Shown here piece by piece: positions 18,438 through 58,156 of a stretch of 64,000 bases of DNA. Each line of letters begins with the position of its first letter. Position 1 is the stretch's first letter. The notes below the pieces were generated by a model, which did not search any database, was not told the DNA's origin, and worked only from the letters and a program-made list of their open reading frames with translations. Made by a program: the position numbers and the translations under genes. Location: assembly GCA_021787845.1 (NCBI GenBank), contig JAJYLH010000003.1, positions 1 to 64,000 of the forward strand, given 5' to 3'. This DNA is from Myxococcales bacterium. Its GTDB lineage: Bacteria; Myxococcota; Myxococcia; Myxococcales; JAJYLH01.

Positions 18438-18483
18438 GACCGATCGGTCGGATCCGACTGATCGGTCTGATCGAGCTGATCGG
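18438..18483. repeat. 9-bp-unit palindromic array, copy 1
   Basis: Period-9 units of the CCGATCGGT/CGGATCCGA type are arranged as a palindrome centred on GGATCC, with arms of about 16 bp and one mismatch. Other members: 47971-48014, 50631-50676, 53554-53603, 56340-56387 and 58013-58060. All are intergenic. Confidence 0.75.
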
Positions 18484-22490: not shown

Positions 22491-22785
22491 CCACCACCTC
22501 GGGAAAAGAACTCTCCACCCCGTCGCACACGGCCTTCGCCCGCCAGCGCGCCGGCGTTCGAACAGGAGCGAACACAGTAGAAACCGATGGCCGGCGGTGT
22601 CAACGCGCGAGGCGGCGCACCCTGCGCTCGCCTTGGGGTCCGCCGCCGGTGGAGGTCGCGACCTCGCGCGGGAGTTGCCGCAGCCCGAGAGGGGGAGCGG
22701 CGCCGTTCGGACGGGTCGAAAATCGGGAGCCGCCGGCATCAGTCGCGCCCAAGCGGAGCGAATCGCCGGAAGGAGCGGGGCGCCA

Positions 22786-22839
22786 TTGACATCCCCACGC
22801 GATGGATGCTATGGGCCGCGCCCCTTTGCTTGGGGCGGC
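22786..22839 (+). promoter_or_regulatory. Promoter and start-site palindrome of PP2C gene
   Basis: TTGACA (22786-22791), 17 bp, CTATGG (22809-22814). Immediately downstream an inverted repeat, CGCCCC (22819-22824) with GGGGCG (22832-22837), overlaps the expected transcription start and could be an operator or 5'-UTR hairpin. The second classic PP2C gene at 62138 has the same arrangement. Confidence 0.6.
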
Positions 22840-22865
22840 TCTTCTTCGAAACTGATGGCGGTCGC

Positions 22866-23627
22866 ATGAGCTTTTCCACCGCGGGCCTGACGGATGTCGG
22901 TCGCAAGCGCGAGCACAACGAGGACGCGCTCCTGGTCGCGCCGGAGCACGGGCTCATCGTCGTCGCCGACGGGATGGGCGGTCACCAGGCGGGCGAGGTC
23001 GCGTCGAACATCGCGGTGACGATGCTCGCGGAGCTGTTCGAACGCTTCGCGGAAGATCCGGAGGTCACCTGGCCGCACCCGCTCGACCATCGGTACGACG
23101 CCGCGGCGAACCGGCTCCTCGCCGCCTTGCAGCTCGCCAACGCCAAGATCCACGAGAGCGCTCACGAGGAGGGGAAGCAGGGGATGGGCACCACCTGCGT
23201 CGCGCTCCTGGTCGACAAGGCCCACGCGTGGGTGGCCTGGGTGGGCGACAGCCGCGGCTACTTGTGGCGCGAGGGCGCGCTCCAGCAGGTGACGAGCGAC
23301 CATTCGCTCTTCGGCGAGCTCGTGCGCAGCGGCCACCTGAAGCCCGCGGATCTGGCGACCTTCCCGCACAAGAACGTCATCACCCGCGCGCTGGGGATGG
23401 CGGCGACGGTCGAGATCGACCTGGTGCGGGTCGACCTGCAAGACGGCGACATCCTGCTCGCGTGCTCCGACGGCCTGTCCGGAATGGTGGACGACGAGGA
23501 CATCGCGGCGCGGCTCTCCCGCGAGGTACCGCTGGACGATGCCTGCCGCGAGCTGATCGACGCCGCGAACTCCGCCGGCGGAATCGACAACGTCACGGTC
23601 GCGCTGGCGCGCTACCAGGCGAGCTGA
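22866..23627 (+). CDS. PP2C-family Ser/Thr protein phosphatase (Stp1-like)
   Basis: A 253-aa bacterial PPM phosphatase from ATG 22866: TDVGRKREHNEDAL (metal ligand region), LIVVADGMGGHQAGEVAS (DGMGGH), MGTTCVALLV, WVGDSRGYLWREGALQQVTS DHS region, LACSDGLSGMVDDEDI and GGIDNVTVALARY (DN). All metal-binding Asp residues are present, and the length is typical of Stp1/PrpC. It dephosphorylates substrates of Hanks-type kinases in the cytoplasm; no kinase gene is adjacent. The second PP2C (62138) is the same size and is a likely paralogue. Confidence 0.93.
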   Translation: MSFSTAGLTDVGRKREHNEDALLVAPEHGLIVVADGMGGHQAGEVASNIAVTMLAELFERFAEDPEVTWPHPLDHRYDAAANRLLAALQLANAKIHESAHEEGKQGMGTTCVALLVDKAHAWVAWVGDSRGYLWREGALQQVTSDHSLFGELVRSGHLKPADLATFPHKNVITRALGMAATVEIDLVRVDLQDGDILLACSDGLSGMVDDEDIAARLSREVPLDDACRELIDAANSAGGIDNVTVALARYQAS

Positions 23628-38860: not shown

Positions 38861-39457
38861 CTAGTGGACCCGCTTCTCGGCGGCGCTCCAGTCGACGTTG
38901 CGCTGGTACGCCTCGACGTACTTGCCTCGCTCGGTCGGCTTGTAGTCGGGCACGAACGCGTGCTCCCAGGCGTCCATCACCACGATGGGGATGAACCCCG
39001 CGGGGTTGCCGTCGTTGTGCAGGGTCACCCAGTGGTTCGACAAGAGCTTGGTGGTCGGGTCCTGGTAGGTGATGGCCCAGCCCACCCCGCGGAAGCTCGC
39101 GATGGCCTTGAAGTCGGCCATGTACGTGTCCCAGTTGCCGAACGACTTCACCACCGCGTCGAAGAATTTGCCGCTCTGCGGCATCGGGCTGCCACCGGCC
39201 TTCAGGTTGTCGAAGTAGTACTCGTGCAGAATCATCCCGTTGCACTCGAACCCCAGGCGGCGGGTCATCTCGGCGTAGGCGAGGTTGGTGCCGGCCGCCT
39301 TGCCTTCCTTGGCGAGCTGGATGAGCTGCTCGGTCAGCGCGTTGGTGTTCTTCACGTAGCCCTGGTAGAGCGCGAAATGGCTCTCCAGCACCGCGTCGGA
39401 GATGCCGTTCAAGCCCTTCAGGTTCGGCCAAGTGCGGGGCGTGTACTGCTTGTTCAT
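38861..39457 (-). CDS. sodB: Fe/Mn superoxide dismutase
   Basis: A 198-aa protein. Metal-ligand region GLNGISDAVLESHFALYQGY, GFECNGMILHEYYFDNL, VGWAITYQDPTTKLLSNHWV and the signature VVMDAWEHAF (D-x-W-E-H). It disproportionates superoxide in the cytoplasm. ATG 39457 fits the normal length. The sequence at the active site does not by itself tell Fe from Mn. The symbol is tentative. Confidence 0.9.
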   Translation of the reverse strand: MNKQYTPRTWPNLKGLNGISDAVLESHFALYQGYVKNTNALTEQLIQLAKEGKAAGTNLAYAEMTRRLGFECNGMILHEYYFDNLKAGGSPMPQSGKFFDAVVKSFGNWDTYMADFKAIASFRGVGWAITYQDPTTKLLSNHWVTLHNDGNPAGFIPIVVMDAWEHAFVPDYKPTERGKYVEAYQRNVDWSAAEKRVH

Positions 39458-39686
39458 GATTTCCTCGAAAGTCGGTTGAGAATCGCCGGGCGCTGGACTC
39501 CCGTCGCGCGGCCGCCGCCCCGGACCGAGCACCGAGCGCGGCTCGTTCGAGCGCGAGGGAGATAAGAACGCCGCTCCCCAGCGTCAAGGCTCGGCCAGCG
39601 TCGGGCCGCGGGATGTCCGGCACCGGTCGTTGGGTGGCGACCTGCTAGGCTTACGGCGCGACCGGTCGAGGCGGCGAGGAGTCGAA

Positions 39687-42772: not shown

Positions 42773-43957
42773 ATGCCGCTTCCGTCGGTCGATCAATACG
42801 CAGCCGCGGTCCAGTCGCCCCGCCACGCGTTCCAGGACCCGGAGCTGGCCGCCGCGGCCATCGCGCTCGGCCCCTTCGGCCTGCCCCGGGTGATCTCCGG
42901 CAATTTCGGGCTGGTCTACCGGGCGGCGAGCCACTCCCGGCGCGAGTTCGCCCTCAAGGTCTTCACCCGCTTCGAGCCCGACCTCACCCGCCGCTACGAC
43001 GCCATCGCCCAGCACCTGAAGCGCTCCCGCTCGGCGCGGTTCGTGGGGTTCGATTTCCAGCCGGCCGGCATCCTCGTCGAGGGCGCGCGCCACCCGCTCC
43101 TGAAGATGGAATGGATCGAAGGCACCACCCTCGCCCGCTACCTCGCGCAGAACTTGCGCTCGGACCTGCTCTACGACGTGGCCCACGACTGGATCCGCCT
43201 CGTCGAGGAGCTCGGGCAGACCGGCATCGCTCACGGGGACCTCCAGCACGGCAACGTCATCGTCACCGCCGCCGGCTTGAAGCTCGTCGACTACGACGGG
43301 ATGTTCGTCCCGGCCCTACGGGGCCTGCCGGGCGTCGAGCTCGGCCACCGCAACTACCAGCACCCGGCTCGCACCGGCACCGAGTTCCACGCGGAGCTCG
43401 ACAACTTTTCCGCCTGGCTCATCGACGTCTCGCTCCTCTCCCTCGCCGCCGATCCCAGCCTCTGGCGCCGCTACTCGGGCGGCGACGAGAAGCTGCTCTT
43501 CTCCCAGGCCGATCTGCAGGCGCCCGCCTCGTCGGCGCTCTTTCGGGAGCTCGAATCGAGCGGGCGTCTGCACGCGGTCAACGGGGCGCGGCTGCTCAAG
43601 GAGCTCTTGCGGCGCCCGCCGGAAGTGGCGCCGAGGCTCACCGGCGATGCCGCTCAGCGCCACCTCCACCTGGGGATTCCCCTCCCGCCGGCGCCGACCG
43701 GATGGGTGCCGCGGGCGCCTGCGTCGGGACCGATTCCGGGATGGCTCCACGACCAGCTCCATCCGACCGTGGTGCGCGTCGCCGCGCCGCGTCCGCCTCC
43801 GGCACCGCCGGTGTGCAGTTGCGGTCGGCCCATCCTTCCGGCACGGGCGGGGATGCGGGGCTCACAGTGCGGCCGCTGTCATTCGCGGACACGGCGGGGG
43901 CGGCGGTGCAACCAGCATGTCCGGCCGGGACGGACCTACTGCGGCCGGCATCGGTGA
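42773..43957 (+). CDS. Atypical protein kinase of a TerY-P-type triad, C-terminal zinc cluster
   Basis: A 394-aa protein. Kinase features: GNFGLVYRAASHSRREFALK (Gly loop and ATP Lys), LLKMEWIEGTTLARYLAQNL (hinge), GIAHGDLQHGNVIV (HGD...N catalytic loop) and KLVDYDGMFVP, where DYD replaces DFG. A Pro-rich linker leads to about 14 Cys/His in CSCGRPILPARAGMRGSQCG and CGRCHSRTRRGRRCNQHVRP, a zinc-binding tail. Genes for a vWA protein and a PP2C-like phosphatase follow directly, the composition of the kinase-vWA-phosphatase (TerY-P) triads described from comparative genomics. Confidence 0.85.
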   Translation: MPLPSVDQYAAAVQSPRHAFQDPELAAAAIALGPFGLPRVISGNFGLVYRAASHSRREFALKVFTRFEPDLTRRYDAIAQHLKRSRSARFVGFDFQPAGILVEGARHPLLKMEWIEGTTLARYLAQNLRSDLLYDVAHDWIRLVEELGQTGIAHGDLQHGNVIVTAAGLKLVDYDGMFVPALRGLPGVELGHRNYQHPARTGTEFHAELDNFSAWLIDVSLLSLAADPSLWRRYSGGDEKLLFSQADLQAPASSALFRELESSGRLHAVNGARLLKELLRRPPEVAPRLTGDAAQRHLHLGIPLPPAPTGWVPRAPASGPIPGWLHDQLHPTVVRVAAPRPPPAPPVCSCGRPILPARAGMRGSQCGRCHSRTRRGRRCNQHVRPGRTYCGRHR

Positions 43958-44055
43958 TTCGTAGTGCCGTTGACCCGGCGCTCCGCCCGGGATTAGCGTG
44001 CGGGTTTCCATTGCCGCCCGACGATCCCGCCGGACCGCGAACAGGGGATCCGCAC

Positions 44056-44895
44056 ATGTACAGCGCCGAAATCAGCCGCACGAATCCGACGTGCTTTCTC
44101 TTCCTCATCGACCGCTCCGGCTCGATGGACGACCCGTTCGGCGGCGACGCGGGCGGGCGCAAGAAGTCCGCCGCGGTCGCCGACGACATCAACAAGCTTC
44201 TGCAGACCCTGGCCATCCGGTGCGCGAAGGAGGAAGGCATTCGCGACTACTTCCACGTCGGCGTCATCGGCTACGGCAACGAGCTGGTGAAGCCGGCGTT
44301 CGTCGGGCCCCTCGCCGGGCGCGAGCTGGTGCCGATGAGCGAGGTGGCGAACGCGCCCGCGCGAGTGGAGGAGCGCACCAAGCAGGTCGACGACGGTGCC
44401 GGGGGGCTCGCCTCGACGAAGGTCCGGTTTCCGGTGTGGTTCGACCCCATCGCGAGCGGCTCGACGCCGATGTGCAAGGCGCTCCAGAAAGCGCGCAGCG
44501 TGGTCCAGGATTTCATCGCCGGCCACCCGAGCTGCTTCCCGCCGGTGGTCATCAACATCACCGACGGCGAGTCGACCGACGGCGACCCGTCCGGGCTGGC
44601 GGACGAGCTGAAGGCGCTCTCGGTGCCCGACGGGAACGTGCTGCTCTTCAACGCGCACTGCTCCTCGGCGAGGGCGAATCCGGTGCTGTTCGCCGACAGC
44701 GAAGCCGTGCTCCCGGACGATTTCGCGCGGCTCCTGTTCCGGATGTCGAGCGAGCTGACGCCGTTCATGCGCCAGGCGGCGACCGCCGAGGGCATCCCGG
44801 CGAGCAACGACAGCCGCGGCTACGCGTTCAACGCCGGGCTCGTGGAAATCATCAAGTTCCTGGACATCGGCACCCGGGTCGGGAACCTGCGCTGA
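44056..44895 (+). CDS. TerY-type von Willebrand factor A protein
   Basis: A 279-aa protein. MIDAS motif FLIDRSGSMDDPFGGDAGGR (DxSGS), HVGVIGYGNELVKPAFVG, Thr-bearing IASGSTPMCKALQKARSVVQ, and VVINITDGESTDGDPSG (the third metal ligand). No signal peptide, so it is cytoplasmic. It probably binds a phosphorylated or metal-dependent ligand and acts as the scaffold between kinase and phosphatase. It starts 98 nt after the kinase and ends 14 nt before the phosphatase. Confidence 0.87.
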   Translation: MYSAEISRTNPTCFLFLIDRSGSMDDPFGGDAGGRKKSAAVADDINKLLQTLAIRCAKEEGIRDYFHVGVIGYGNELVKPAFVGPLAGRELVPMSEVANAPARVEERTKQVDDGAGGLASTKVRFPVWFDPIASGSTPMCKALQKARSVVQDFIAGHPSCFPPVVINITDGESTDGDPSGLADELKALSVPDGNVLLFNAHCSSARANPVLFADSEAVLPDDFARLLFRMSSELTPFMRQAATAEGIPASNDSRGYAFNAGLVEIIKFLDIGTRVGNLR

Positions 44896-44909
44896 CGCGT
44901 GGGGAGGAG

Positions 44910-45692
44910 ATGGCCGCGACCCGGGCGCAGCTCTTCTGCGTCCCGAAGCGCGGGCTCGACCTCGCGCGGATGGAAGACGTCGCCTGGATGGGGGGCGGCA
45001 GCGCTTCCGATTTTCCGCGGCGCTTCGCCATTTCGGACGGAGCGACGGAAGCGATTTTCTCGCGCTTGTGGGCGACGACGCTGACCCGGGCGTTGGGGCG
45101 CGGCGAGCTGGACGATTTCTCGCCCCGCGCGCTCGAGCCGGCGCGGCGGATCTTCCGGTCGGCGGTGGCGGAGCGGCTTTCCAGGATGCGGGCGGGCGGC
45201 GGCGTGCCCTGGTACGTCGACGAGAAGCTCGTGCAGGGCAGCTTCGCGACGCTCCTGGGGCTCCGGCTGGAAGCGAAGGGCCGGTTCGAGGCGGTGGCGG
45301 TCGGCGACTCCTGCCTCGTTCAGGTCGATGCCGAGGGCCAGGTCCGCGCGCGCTTCCCGCTCGCGTCGCCGGACGAGTTCGGGACGCGCCCGGCGCTCGT
45401 CGGGAGCGATCCTGCGCGCGACGCGATGCTCGTCGGCGAGGTGCGGAGGTTTTCCGGGACCTTCGCGCGCGGCGACACCTTCTTCCTGATGACCGACGCG
45501 TTCGCCGCGTGGTTCTACGCCGGCGCCGATGCGCGCTGGCGGCCGTGGCTCGCGTTCGACGAGCTCGACCCGGCGCGCGCGGCGGACCGCGAGAAATTCA
45601 CCGAGCTCGTCGAGGTCTCTCGCGACGACGGCGAGATGCGCAACGACGACGTGCTCGTCTTGCGGGTGAGAGCGGGCGAATCGGCACGCTGA
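44910..45692 (+). CDS. PP2C-like phosphatase of the triad
   Basis: A 260-aa divergent PPM phosphatase: MEDVAWMGGGSASDFPRRFA then ISDGATEAIFS (the first Asp of DG), GSFATLLGLRLEAKGRFEAV, AVGDSCLVQVDAEGQVRAR (GDS), FLMTDAFAAWFYAG (T-D) and NDDVLVLRVRAG (DD). Its metal ligands are spaced as in PP2C, although it lacks the usual DGMGGH. It starts behind GGGGAGGAG. It should reverse phosphorylation made by the upstream kinase. Confidence 0.82.
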   Translation: MAATRAQLFCVPKRGLDLARMEDVAWMGGGSASDFPRRFAISDGATEAIFSRLWATTLTRALGRGELDDFSPRALEPARRIFRSAVAERLSRMRAGGGVPWYVDEKLVQGSFATLLGLRLEAKGRFEAVAVGDSCLVQVDAEGQVRARFPLASPDEFGTRPALVGSDPARDAMLVGEVRRFSGTFARGDTFFLMTDAFAAWFYAGADARWRPWLAFDELDPARAADREKFTELVEVSRDDGEMRNDDVLVLRVRAGESAR

Positions 45693-46790: not shown

Positions 46791-47974
46791 TCGTGCCGGC
46801 GAACAAGTGGGCCACCGAGGAGCTGGAGAATCTCGAGGCGGCCGGGTTGATTCGGACGCTCGAGCCGCTCGATTCGCCGCAGGGCGCGGAGGTTCGCGTC
46901 GGCGGCGAGGAGCTCGTCAACTTCTCGTCGAACGACTACCTCGGGCTCGCGCAGAATTTCGAGCTCGTCCGGGCGGCGACCGACGCGATGGAGCGGTTCG
47001 GCTTCGGCGCGGGCGCGTCGCGGCTGGTCACCGGCGACACCCGCGCGCATGCGGAGCTGGAGACCGCTCTCGCTCAGCTTTTCGACTCGCCGGCGCTGAT
47101 TTTCAACACGGGCTACGCGGCGAATGCCGGCATCCTGTCGACCCTGGCCAGGCGCGGGGACGCGATCTTCTCGGACGCGCTCAACCACGCCTCGCTGATC
47201 GACGGGGCGCGGCTCTCGCGCGCAAGCATCGAGGTCTATCCGCACCGCGACGCGAACGCGCTCGATCGGCTCCTCGCGGGCTCGAAGGCGCGGCGGAAGA
47301 TCGTCTGCACCGACGCGGTCTTCTCGATGGACGGGGACGTCGCGCCGATTTCCGCGCTGCTCGCGGTGTGCGAACGGAACGGGGCGGCGCTCTTGGTGGA
47401 CGAAGCGCATGCGTTCGGCGTCTTCGGTCCTGCCGGGCGTGGCGTGTGCGAGATGGTCGGGGTCGCGTCCAAAGTCGACGTGCGGATGTTCACGCTCGGC
47501 AAGGCGGCGGGAAGTTTCGGCGCGTTCGCGGTCGCGTCGGAGCCGGTGATCGGGTGGCTCCGGCAGCGGGCGCGGTCGATGGTCTACTCGACGGCGCTGC
47601 CGCCCGGCGTCTTGGCGGCGTCGCGGGCGGCGGTCGCGCTTCTCGCGGCGGCGAACGACCGGCGCGCGCAGCTCTGGCGGCTGACCGAGCGGCTCGCGGC
47701 GGGCCTACGCGCGCTGGGCCTCGAAGCCCAGGACCATTCGCCGATTTTCCCCATCGTGCTGGGAGCTCCCGAACGCGCGCTGGAGGTTTCGGCCGAGCTG
47801 CGCGCGCGCGGCCTGCTCGTCAAGGCGATTCGCCCGCCCACCGTGCCCGAGGGAACGAGCCGCCTGCGCGTCGCGCTCTCCGCCGCGCACACCGACGAGC
47901 ACCTCGCGCGGCTCCTCGCGGCGCTCCGGGAAATCGGCGTCGGCCCAGGTGACGGCGTTCCCGCCTCGGACTGA
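46787..47974 (+). CDS. bioF: 8-amino-7-oxononanoate synthase BioF
   Basis: A 395-aa PLP enzyme of the alpha-oxoamine synthase family: [78 protein letters not shown], the PLP Lys in [14 protein letters not shown], and [20 protein letters not shown]. It joins pimeloyl-CoA/ACP and alanine. It overlaps bioB by four bases. Its stop codon touches a 9-bp palindromic repeat array. Confidence 0.95.
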
Positions 47975-48014
47975 TCAGACCGATCGGTCCGATCGGTCCG
48001 ATCGGTCTGATCGA
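47971..48014. repeat. 9-bp-unit palindromic array, copy 2
   Basis: TGATCAGACCGATCGG pairs with CCGATCGGTCTGATCG around about 10 nt of further units. It starts within the bioF stop codon and separates convergent genes; it may serve as a bidirectional terminator. Confidence 0.8.
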
Positions 48015-49681: not shown

Positions 49682-50017
49682 GTAGGATGGACGGTCCGGT
49701 CGCCTCCTGGACTTGCGATGCGCTGGAACGATCCACGCGACCGGCCGTCCGTCGTTCCAGAGCGATCGCTACGGGGACGACGGACAGCTCTGGGATGTCG
49801 GACGGCTCTGGCTCTGGAATGTCGGACGGCTCTGGCTCTGGGATGTCGGACGGCTCTGGCTCTGGGATGTCGGACGGCTCTGGCTCTGGAATGTCGGACG
49901 GCTCTGGCTCTGGAATGTCGGACGGCTCTGGCTCTGGAATGTCGGACGGCTCTGGCTCTGGAATGTCGGACGGCCGTTCACCCGCCTAACGGCGTGCGAC
50001 CGGACCGTCCAACCTAC
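49682..50017. mobile_element. 336-bp inverted-repeat-bounded unit with seven 24-bp repeats
   Basis: Ends 49682-49703 (GTAGGATGGACGGTCCGGT...) and 49996-50017 are inverted copies, 21 of 22 bases matching. Inside, 24-bp units run head to tail seven times (49800-49967), differing only by A or G at one position, preceded by an 18-bp partial copy. Frame 3 would encode MSDGSGSG seven times, but there is no RBS. The form is of a non-autonomous MITE- or REP-type unit; ends share GTAGGATGG with the REP-like pairs at 5543 and 23655. Confidence 0.75.
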
Positions 50018-50630: not shown

Positions 50631-50676
50631 CCGACGATCGGACCGATCGGTCCGATCCGACCGATCGGTCTGATGG
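50631..50676. repeat. 9-bp-unit palindromic array, copy 3
   Basis: CGATCGGACCGATCGG faces CCGATCGGTCTGATGG (two mismatches in the stem) across CCGATCCGA-type units. It lies between two minus-strand genes, upstream of osmC. Confidence 0.75.
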
Positions 50677-53553: not shown

Positions 53554-53603
53554 CATCGGACCGATCGGTCGGATCGGTCCGATCGGTCCGATCGGTCCGA
53601 TGG
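53554..53603. repeat. 9-bp-unit palindromic array, copy 4
   Basis: CATCGGACCGATCGG pairs perfectly with CCGATCGGTCCGATG (15 bp) around two more CGATCGGTC-type units. It lies in the 404-bp divergent gap upstream of lon, an odd place for a terminator. Confidence 0.8.
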
Positions 53604-56339: not shown

Positions 56340-56387
56340 GACCGATCGGACCGATCCGACGGATCCGACCGATCGGTCCGATCGGCG
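56340..56387. repeat. 9-bp-unit palindromic array, copy 5
   Basis: CCGATCGGACCGATC pairs perfectly with GATCGGTCCGATCGG (15 bp) around a 14-nt centre, 45 nt after the lon stop; this could terminate lon transcripts before recX. Confidence 0.8.
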
Positions 56388-57805: not shown

Positions 57806-58156
57806 AGGGCTCGCCGCTTCCCAGTCTGGAGCCCGGCTTCCGTTCTCTTGTGGCACAAGCGTCCCCGCCTGTGGAACGCGCGTGGGAACCCCCTGGACTT
57901 GCCGCGTCGACCAGGCCTCCATGGGCGAGGACGCCCGTGCCACTGGAGAAGAACCGCGCTGAGCTCGAACGAGACGGAAAGCCCGCGAAGTGAATCGCGC
58001 CTCGGCCGCGCGCCGATCGATCCGTCCGATCCGACCGATCCGACCGATCCGTCCGATCGGCGGACGGGGCCGGCGACCACGGGCGGATGCTGAGCGACTC
58101 CGGGGCCGACGGCAACGGCGCGCGCCGGCCCGCCCCCCCTTGACCGCTGCCGCTCC
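57806..58156. repeat. Convergent non-coding stretch: GTGGCAC element and 9-bp array (copy 6)
   Basis: No gene is seen. An inverted-repeat element spans 57850-57943: GTGGCACAAGCGTCCCCGCC at the left faces the inverse of GTGGCACGGGCGTCCTCGCC at the right, with a 44-bp centre. A 9-bp-unit array lies at 58013-58060; its arms match only at CCGATCG/CGATCGG, so it is the most decayed copy. Both genes flanking it end here. Confidence 0.65.

What the first reader, a model, noticed from the sequence alone, without database searches (positions are those of the whole stretch)
42773..45692. Stand-alone TerY-P triad: kinase with zinc tail, vWA protein, PP2C-like phosphatase
Three adjacent plus-strand genes match the kinase/TerY/phosphatase triad predicted to accompany tellurium-resistance (Ter) systems, yet no terB/C/D/Z genes are nearby. 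The kinase has DYD instead of DFG and a C-terminal cluster rich in Cys/His; the phosphatase lacks DGMGGH. A chemical-stress or anti-phage signalling role is possible; the ligand and the phosphorylated target are unknown.
Basis: partly seen in the sequence, partly recalled or inferred. Interest (0 to 1): 0.6.

Follow-up and report, generated by a model that had tools for sequence, protein, structure and literature searches.

The report
TerY-P defence triad, zinc-tailed kinase
Three neighbouring genes encode a protein kinase, a metal-binding adaptor and a phosphatase of a known bacterial anti-phage module (TerY-P); here the kinase gene comes first, and a short zinc-finger-like tail replaces the usual long C-terminal domain.

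Summary
Three plus-strand genes encode a Ser/Thr-type kinase (42773-43957), a TerY-like vWA protein (44056-44895) and a PP2C phosphatase (44910-45692). They hit the three PADLOC TerY-P profiles: STK_OB 3.7e-77, TerY 8e-103, PP2C 3.8e-23. All three genes co-occur in 35 of 37 related loci from many phyla, always ordered vWA-PP2C-kinase. DYD instead of DFG and the missing DGMGGH are family-wide traits, not defects: metal-binding and catalytic residues are conserved, and AlphaFold models match Ser/Thr kinases and PP2C phosphatases. TerD is absent from the genome, so a tellurium (Ter) role is not supported. The closest tested systems are stand-alone anti-phage TerY-P triads (Gao 2020; P. aeruginosa, PMC10889362). 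Two things set this copy apart in the sample: the kinase gene is first, and the long C-terminal module of most relatives (coiled-coil/HhH, OB, TPR, WD40, PEGA) is replaced by a 47-residue Cys6/His3 tail. Best reading: a horizontally acquired phosphorylation switch, probably anti-phage, whose variable kinase tail sets what it senses or targets. No experiment exists for this copy. Verdict: new variant of a known kind, moderate-to-low interest.

The parts
42773..43957 (+). Ser/Thr-type protein kinase of the TerY-P/STK_OB family, 394 aa; kinase domain about residues 36-290 with HGDLQHGN (154-161) and DYDG (173-176)
   Evidence: PADLOC STK_OB 3.7e-77 over residues 1-268; alignment A1; AlphaFold pLDDT 82.5 and Foldseek hits to CaMKII and PknB
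43742..43759 (+). Short linker motif WLHDQL (kinase residues 324-329), matching W[VILM]x[DE][HYFQ][LVIAM] in relatives
   Evidence: Found in 11 of 37 kinase linkers, shuffled linkers mean 0.05, max 2; motif defined after inspection
43814..43957 (+). Cys/His tail of the kinase (C348, C350, C366, C369, H370, C379, H382, C390, H393), CCCH-finger-like, plus stop codon
   Evidence: Sub-threshold match to zf-TRM13_CCCH, E 0.019 for the tail alone; unique Cys/His density in the window; no homologue found in relatives
44056..44895 (+). TerY-like vWA protein, 279 aa, intact MIDAS (D19xS21xS23, T137, D170)
   Evidence: PADLOC TerY 8e-103; Pfam VWA above cut-off; MIDAS residues invariant in A3
44910..45692 (+). 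PP2C-family phosphatase, 260 aa, with ED (22-23), DGA (43-45), GD (132-133), D196, DD (246-247)
   Evidence: PADLOC PP2C 3.8e-23; Pfam PP2C_2 above cut-off; AlphaFold pLDDT 94 and Foldseek hits to PppA and PstP; alignment A2

Best explanation
This is a stand-alone TerY-P triad: a phosphorylation switch, most likely an anti-phage defence module gained by horizontal transfer. Shown here: the three gene products, their family membership, conserved active-site and metal-site residues, constant co-occurrence, patchy distribution, and no fourth gene shared by distant loci. Inferred: in uninfected cells the PP2C enzyme keeps the kinase and its substrates dephosphorylated; the TerY protein, through its divalent-metal MIDAS, acts as a scaffold joining kinase, phosphatase or substrate; an infection cue tips the balance to the kinase, which phosphorylates host or phage proteins and blocks phage growth. 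The kinase's variable C-terminal arm, here a zinc-finger-like tail, is inferred to bind the cue or the target, possibly nucleic acid.
For: Profiles of all three TerY-P components hit. The triad is complete in 35 of 37 related loci. HGD/N/DYD in the kinase, MIDAS in the vWA and the PP2C aspartates are invariant. Folds are a protein kinase and PP2C. Presence is patchy: TerY in 22 of 195 genomes of the phylum, kinase in 2 of 189 and 2 of 199 in two other sampled phyla; none of 11 bioB loci examined in relatives carries the triad. No fourth gene is conserved across distant loci. Literature: TerY-P protects P. aeruginosa against Autographiviridae with most cells surviving (PMC10889362) and acts against T7-like phages (PMC7699616); stand-alone OB-type triads are antiphage (PMC11090510). 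KKP (PMC11341870) is a precedent for a kinase/phosphatase balance used in defence.
Against: No experiment exists for this copy or, as far as I found, for a zinc-tailed stand-alone triad. The neighbours are housekeeping genes (aminotransferase, bioB, bioF), not a defence island. The OB domain of the tested antiphage versions is absent. The function of TerY and the phosphorylation targets are not given in the papers read; the order of events is by analogy.
Confidence: 0.6

Rival explanations
1. A chromosomal stress-signalling triad (metal, oxidative or DNA damage) in the sense of the predicted Ter-linked TerY-P systems, not a phage defence system. The zinc tail or MIDAS senses metal and the kinase/phosphatase pair reports it.
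For: TerY-P was first predicted as a metal-sensing switch (described in PMC11090510); zinc tail and MIDAS are metal sites; neighbours are housekeeping genes, including a superoxide dismutase at 38861-39532; single copy in the genome.
Against: No TerD in the genome; closest profiles are the antiphage set; distribution is patchy and crosses phyla.
Confidence: 0.25
2. A degenerating TerY-P triad: the kinase has lost its C-terminal effector arm and the Cys/His tail is read-through of non-coding sequence, so the locus is weakly functional or inactive.
For: GC3 is flat over the tail and linker end; no relative shares the tail; gene order is permuted; long end branch in the kinase and PP2C trees.
Against: Three intact frames, all active-site residues kept, GC3 normal over the kinase domain, vWA and PP2C; Cys/His density unique in the window; linker motif conserved in frame up to residue 329.
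Confidence: 0.12
3. The kinase is a pseudokinase or ATP-binding scaffold; TerY and PP2C do the work.
For: DYD for DFG; the beta3 lysine is Arg in 14 of 16 relatives.
Against: This copy has Lys at that place (K62); catalytic Asp156 and Asn161 and metal Asp173 are invariant.
Confidence: 0.1

Closest known systems
TerY-P anti-phage triad with STK-OB kinase (Gao et al. 2020; PADLOC STK_OB/TerY/PP2C)
   Same: Same three components, stand-alone, strong profile hits over all of TerY, most of PP2C and the kinase domain
   Different: Here the OB-containing half of the kinase is missing (profile 1-271 of 562 matched), a Cys/His tail takes its place, and the kinase gene comes first
TerY-P of P. aeruginosa clinical strains (PMC10889362)
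   Same: Three-gene stand-alone module; shown to protect against Autographiviridae with most cells surviving
   Different: Sequences not compared here; different host; function known there, unknown here
TerY-P triads attached to CoCoNuT type II/III-A restriction systems (PMC11090510)
   Same: Kinase carries a C-terminal zinc ribbon; TerY and PP2C present
   Different: No McrBC/CoCoNuT nuclease or helicase near this locus; the tail is a CCCH-like cluster, and sequence relation to the CoCoNuT ribbon was not tested
E. coli YegL-PphC(YegK)-YegI locus
   Same: Also vWA + PP2C + kinase near one another
   Different: Only marginal sequence similarity: YegL E 1e-5, YegI and PphC not significant by BLASTP; a parallel, remote triad at most
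KKP kinase-kinase-phosphatase defence module (PMC11341870)
   Same: Kinase activity restrained by a phosphatase and used against phages
   Different: Two kinases and, as described, no vWA protein; prophage-encoded; an analogy, not a family link

Membership tests
TerY-P triad (stand-alone, Gao type) | TerY-like vWA protein | tested here: met
   PADLOC TerY 8e-103 over the full profile; MIDAS invariant
TerY-P triad (stand-alone, Gao type) | PP2C-family phosphatase in the same cluster | tested here: met
   PADLOC PP2C 3.8e-23, Pfam PP2C_2 above cut-off, PP2C fold
TerY-P triad (stand-alone, Gao type) | Ser/Thr kinase domain of the STK_OB family | tested here: met
   3.7e-77 over residues 1-268; catalytic residues conserved
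TerY-P triad (stand-alone, Gao type) | C-terminal OB fold on the kinase | tested here: not met
   Profile match stops at position 271 of 562; the protein ends in a Cys/His tail. So it is not filed as an STK-OB system, only as a TerY-P triad variant
TerY-P triad (stand-alone, Gao type) | Anti-phage activity | not testable with these tools
   Needs a plaque assay
TerY-P with zinc-ribbon kinase (CoCoNuT-associated) | Zinc-binding C-terminal tail on the kinase | tested here: inconclusive
   Cys6/His3 tail present, weak zf-TRM13_CCCH match E 0.019; no homology to a ribbon shown and zinc binding untested
TerY-P with zinc-ribbon kinase (CoCoNuT-associated) | Linked CoCoNuT McrBC/helicase genes | tested here: not met
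   Pfam scans of neighbours show none
Ter tellurium-resistance system | TerD-family proteins in the locus or genome | tested here: not met
   PF02342 absent from the genome
Ter tellurium-resistance system | TerB/TerC in the genome | not tested
   Not searched genome-wide; none among the scanned neighbours
E. coli YegI/PphC/YegL triad | Orthologous kinase and phosphatase | tested here: not met
   BLASTP not significant for YegI and PphC

The most novel reading that the evidence does not exclude
Stand-alone TerY-P triads are a modular defence platform in which a constant kinase-TerY-PP2C core is re-aimed by swapping the kinase's C-terminal arm (coiled-coil/HhH, OB, TPR, WD40, PEGA, zinc ribbons). 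This locus carries a new, minimal zinc-finger arm with a rearranged operon, and a conserved tryptophan motif in the linker docks the kinase to TerY or the phosphatase.
Probability: 0.25. Interest if true: 0.55.

Novelty: new variant of a known kind. Interest (0 to 1): 0.35.

Why it matters
How TerY-P triads sense phage, and what the kinase phosphorylates, is open as far as the papers read here say. A copy whose kinase arm is cut down to a short zinc-like tail, beside relatives with very different arms on the same core, gives a simple arm-swap test of whether the C-terminal arm sets sensing or targeting. The recurrent W[VILM]x[DE][HYFQ][LVIAM] linker motif is a concrete candidate docking site.

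Tried and rejected
Tellurium/Ter role: rejected as the leading view because TerD is absent genome-wide. Homology of the tail to relatives or to other proteins of the genome: phmmer and tblastn found none beyond chance. Remnants of a lost kinase C-terminus or of a second kinase around the triad: tblastn of 37 related kinases gave only weak hits; the best near the kinase end is L034 at E 0.01 in the linker. Conserved fourth gene: most shared ORFs were antisense shadows of the triad; only close pairs shared real neighbours. Viral contigs (TerY query) and phage records (kinase query) gave no relative; plasmids gave two cyanobacterial ones. YegI/PphC/YegL of E. coli looked like an ortholog set but is too remote. 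Searches of 400 genomes in two other phyla failed; one of these and a third phylum were searched with about 200 genomes each. No solved structure matches the TerY family well by sequence.

Full report
Observation. The window lies in a 6.24 Mb, 153-contig genome (98% complete); kinase and vWA occur there once as close matches (a second, weak kinase hit has E 8.8e-6).

Identity. PADLOC profiles of the TerY-P system hit all three: STK_OB 3.7e-77, TerY 8e-103, PP2C 3.8e-23. Pfam gives VWA and PP2C_2 above cut-off and Pkinase below it. The kinase match covers only profile positions 1-271 of 562, so the kinase domain is shared but the C-terminal half with the OB fold is missing.

Active sites. In 17 aligned kinases H154, G155, D156, N161, D173, Y174 and D175 are invariant, so DYD is the family's normal form. 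The beta3 position is Lys in this copy (K62), Lys in two relatives and Arg in the other fourteen. The vWA has an invariant MIDAS: D19, S21, S23, T137, D170. The PP2C keeps G132-D133, D43-G44-A45, D196 and D246-D247 as invariant positions and has the ED pair at 22-23. The lack of DGMGGH is again family-wide. AlphaFold models (pLDDT 82.5 for the kinase, 94.1 for PP2C) match CaMKII, PknB and PknA, and PppA and PstP.

Co-occurrence. From 195 genomes of the phylum, TerY occurs in 22; from a scan of species genomes 17 further loci came from Planctomycetota, Riflebacteria, Wallbacteria, Chloroflexota, Thiotrichaceae, Paenibacillaceae, Enterobacterales, cyanobacteria and others. Of 37 loci examined, 35 hold all three genes, always in the order vWA-PP2C-kinase; the two exceptions are a contig that ends inside the vWA gene and a weak vWA-only match. 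The window is the only kinase-first case.

Ancestry. In none of the three trees does the window fall with its order's own Myxococcaceae-like clade (family f4); nearest rows by path are L031 (a Planctomycetota MAG) and L032 (an unclassified MAG), with weak support and long branches. In some relatives, bioB lies next to bioF and close to an aminotransferase, without the triad; here the triad and a YbjN-like gene lie between the aminotransferase and bioB. This fits acquisition by transfer but does not prove it.

The kinase arm. Relatives' kinases carry very different C-terminal parts: WD40 (L062), TPR (L038), PEGA (L034), Top1-type zinc ribbons (L044), Zn_ribbon_3 (L047, sub-threshold), by Pfam; coiled-coil/HhH-like and OB-like segments are judged from the sequences and the PADLOC name. 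This copy ends in a 47-residue Cys6/His3 tail. Its density of Cys and His is unique among 77,119 stop-free 47-aa windows of the region, and it resembles the CCCH finger of TRM13 below threshold (E 0.019 for the tail alone). Against it: GC3 is flat there and no relative shares it. In the linker just before it lies WLHDQL, matching a motif found in 11 of 37 kinase linkers against 0.05 expected from shuffles. The motif was defined after looking, and some of the relatives are close kin, so the number overstates significance.

Function. Stand-alone TerY-P triads have been tested: against T7-like phages (PMC7699616) and in P. aeruginosa against Autographiviridae, where most cells survive (PMC10889362). 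CoCoNuT-linked TerY-P kinases have a zinc ribbon, and the authors suggest nucleic-acid binding for it (PMC11090510). KKP shows that a kinase restrained by a phosphatase can be a phage defence (PMC11341870). The best explanation is a phosphorylation switch of this sort; trigger, target and the role of TerY are inferred. TerD is absent genome-wide, so a Ter/tellurium role is unlikely.

Verdict. A real TerY-P triad of a known kind, with a rearranged operon and an unusual kinase tail.

Noticed in passing
47966-48013, 50635-50674, 53555-53601, 56340-56385, 58013-58058, also 18438-18483: Arrays of a 9-base unit (ATCGGTCCG and variants) recur at several sites, mostly between genes; a 14-base probe matches 40 times against 1.8 expected. 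Function unknown.
   Followed up: partly
49787-49974: A 24-base tandem repeat, 7.8 copies, 98% matches, in a region without a clear gene.
   Followed up: no
22587-23627: A second, ordinary PP2C-type phosphatase gene (Pfam PP2C_2 2.5e-19), not linked to the triad.
   Followed up: no
L062 3973-8580 (-); relatives in L063 and L064; L032 13458-16829: In some relatives a large SF1-type helicase gene, in L062 with an MTES_1575 REase domain, lies beside the triad; a remote (25%) helicase relative lies downstream of the triad in L032.
   Followed up: partly
L044 9580-14433: An Obscuribacterales triad followed by two further kinase-like genes in a row, one without the HGD motif.
   Followed up: no
42773-43957, residue 62: The beta3 catalytic lysine is Arg in 14 of 16 aligned relatives but Lys here.
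   Followed up: partly
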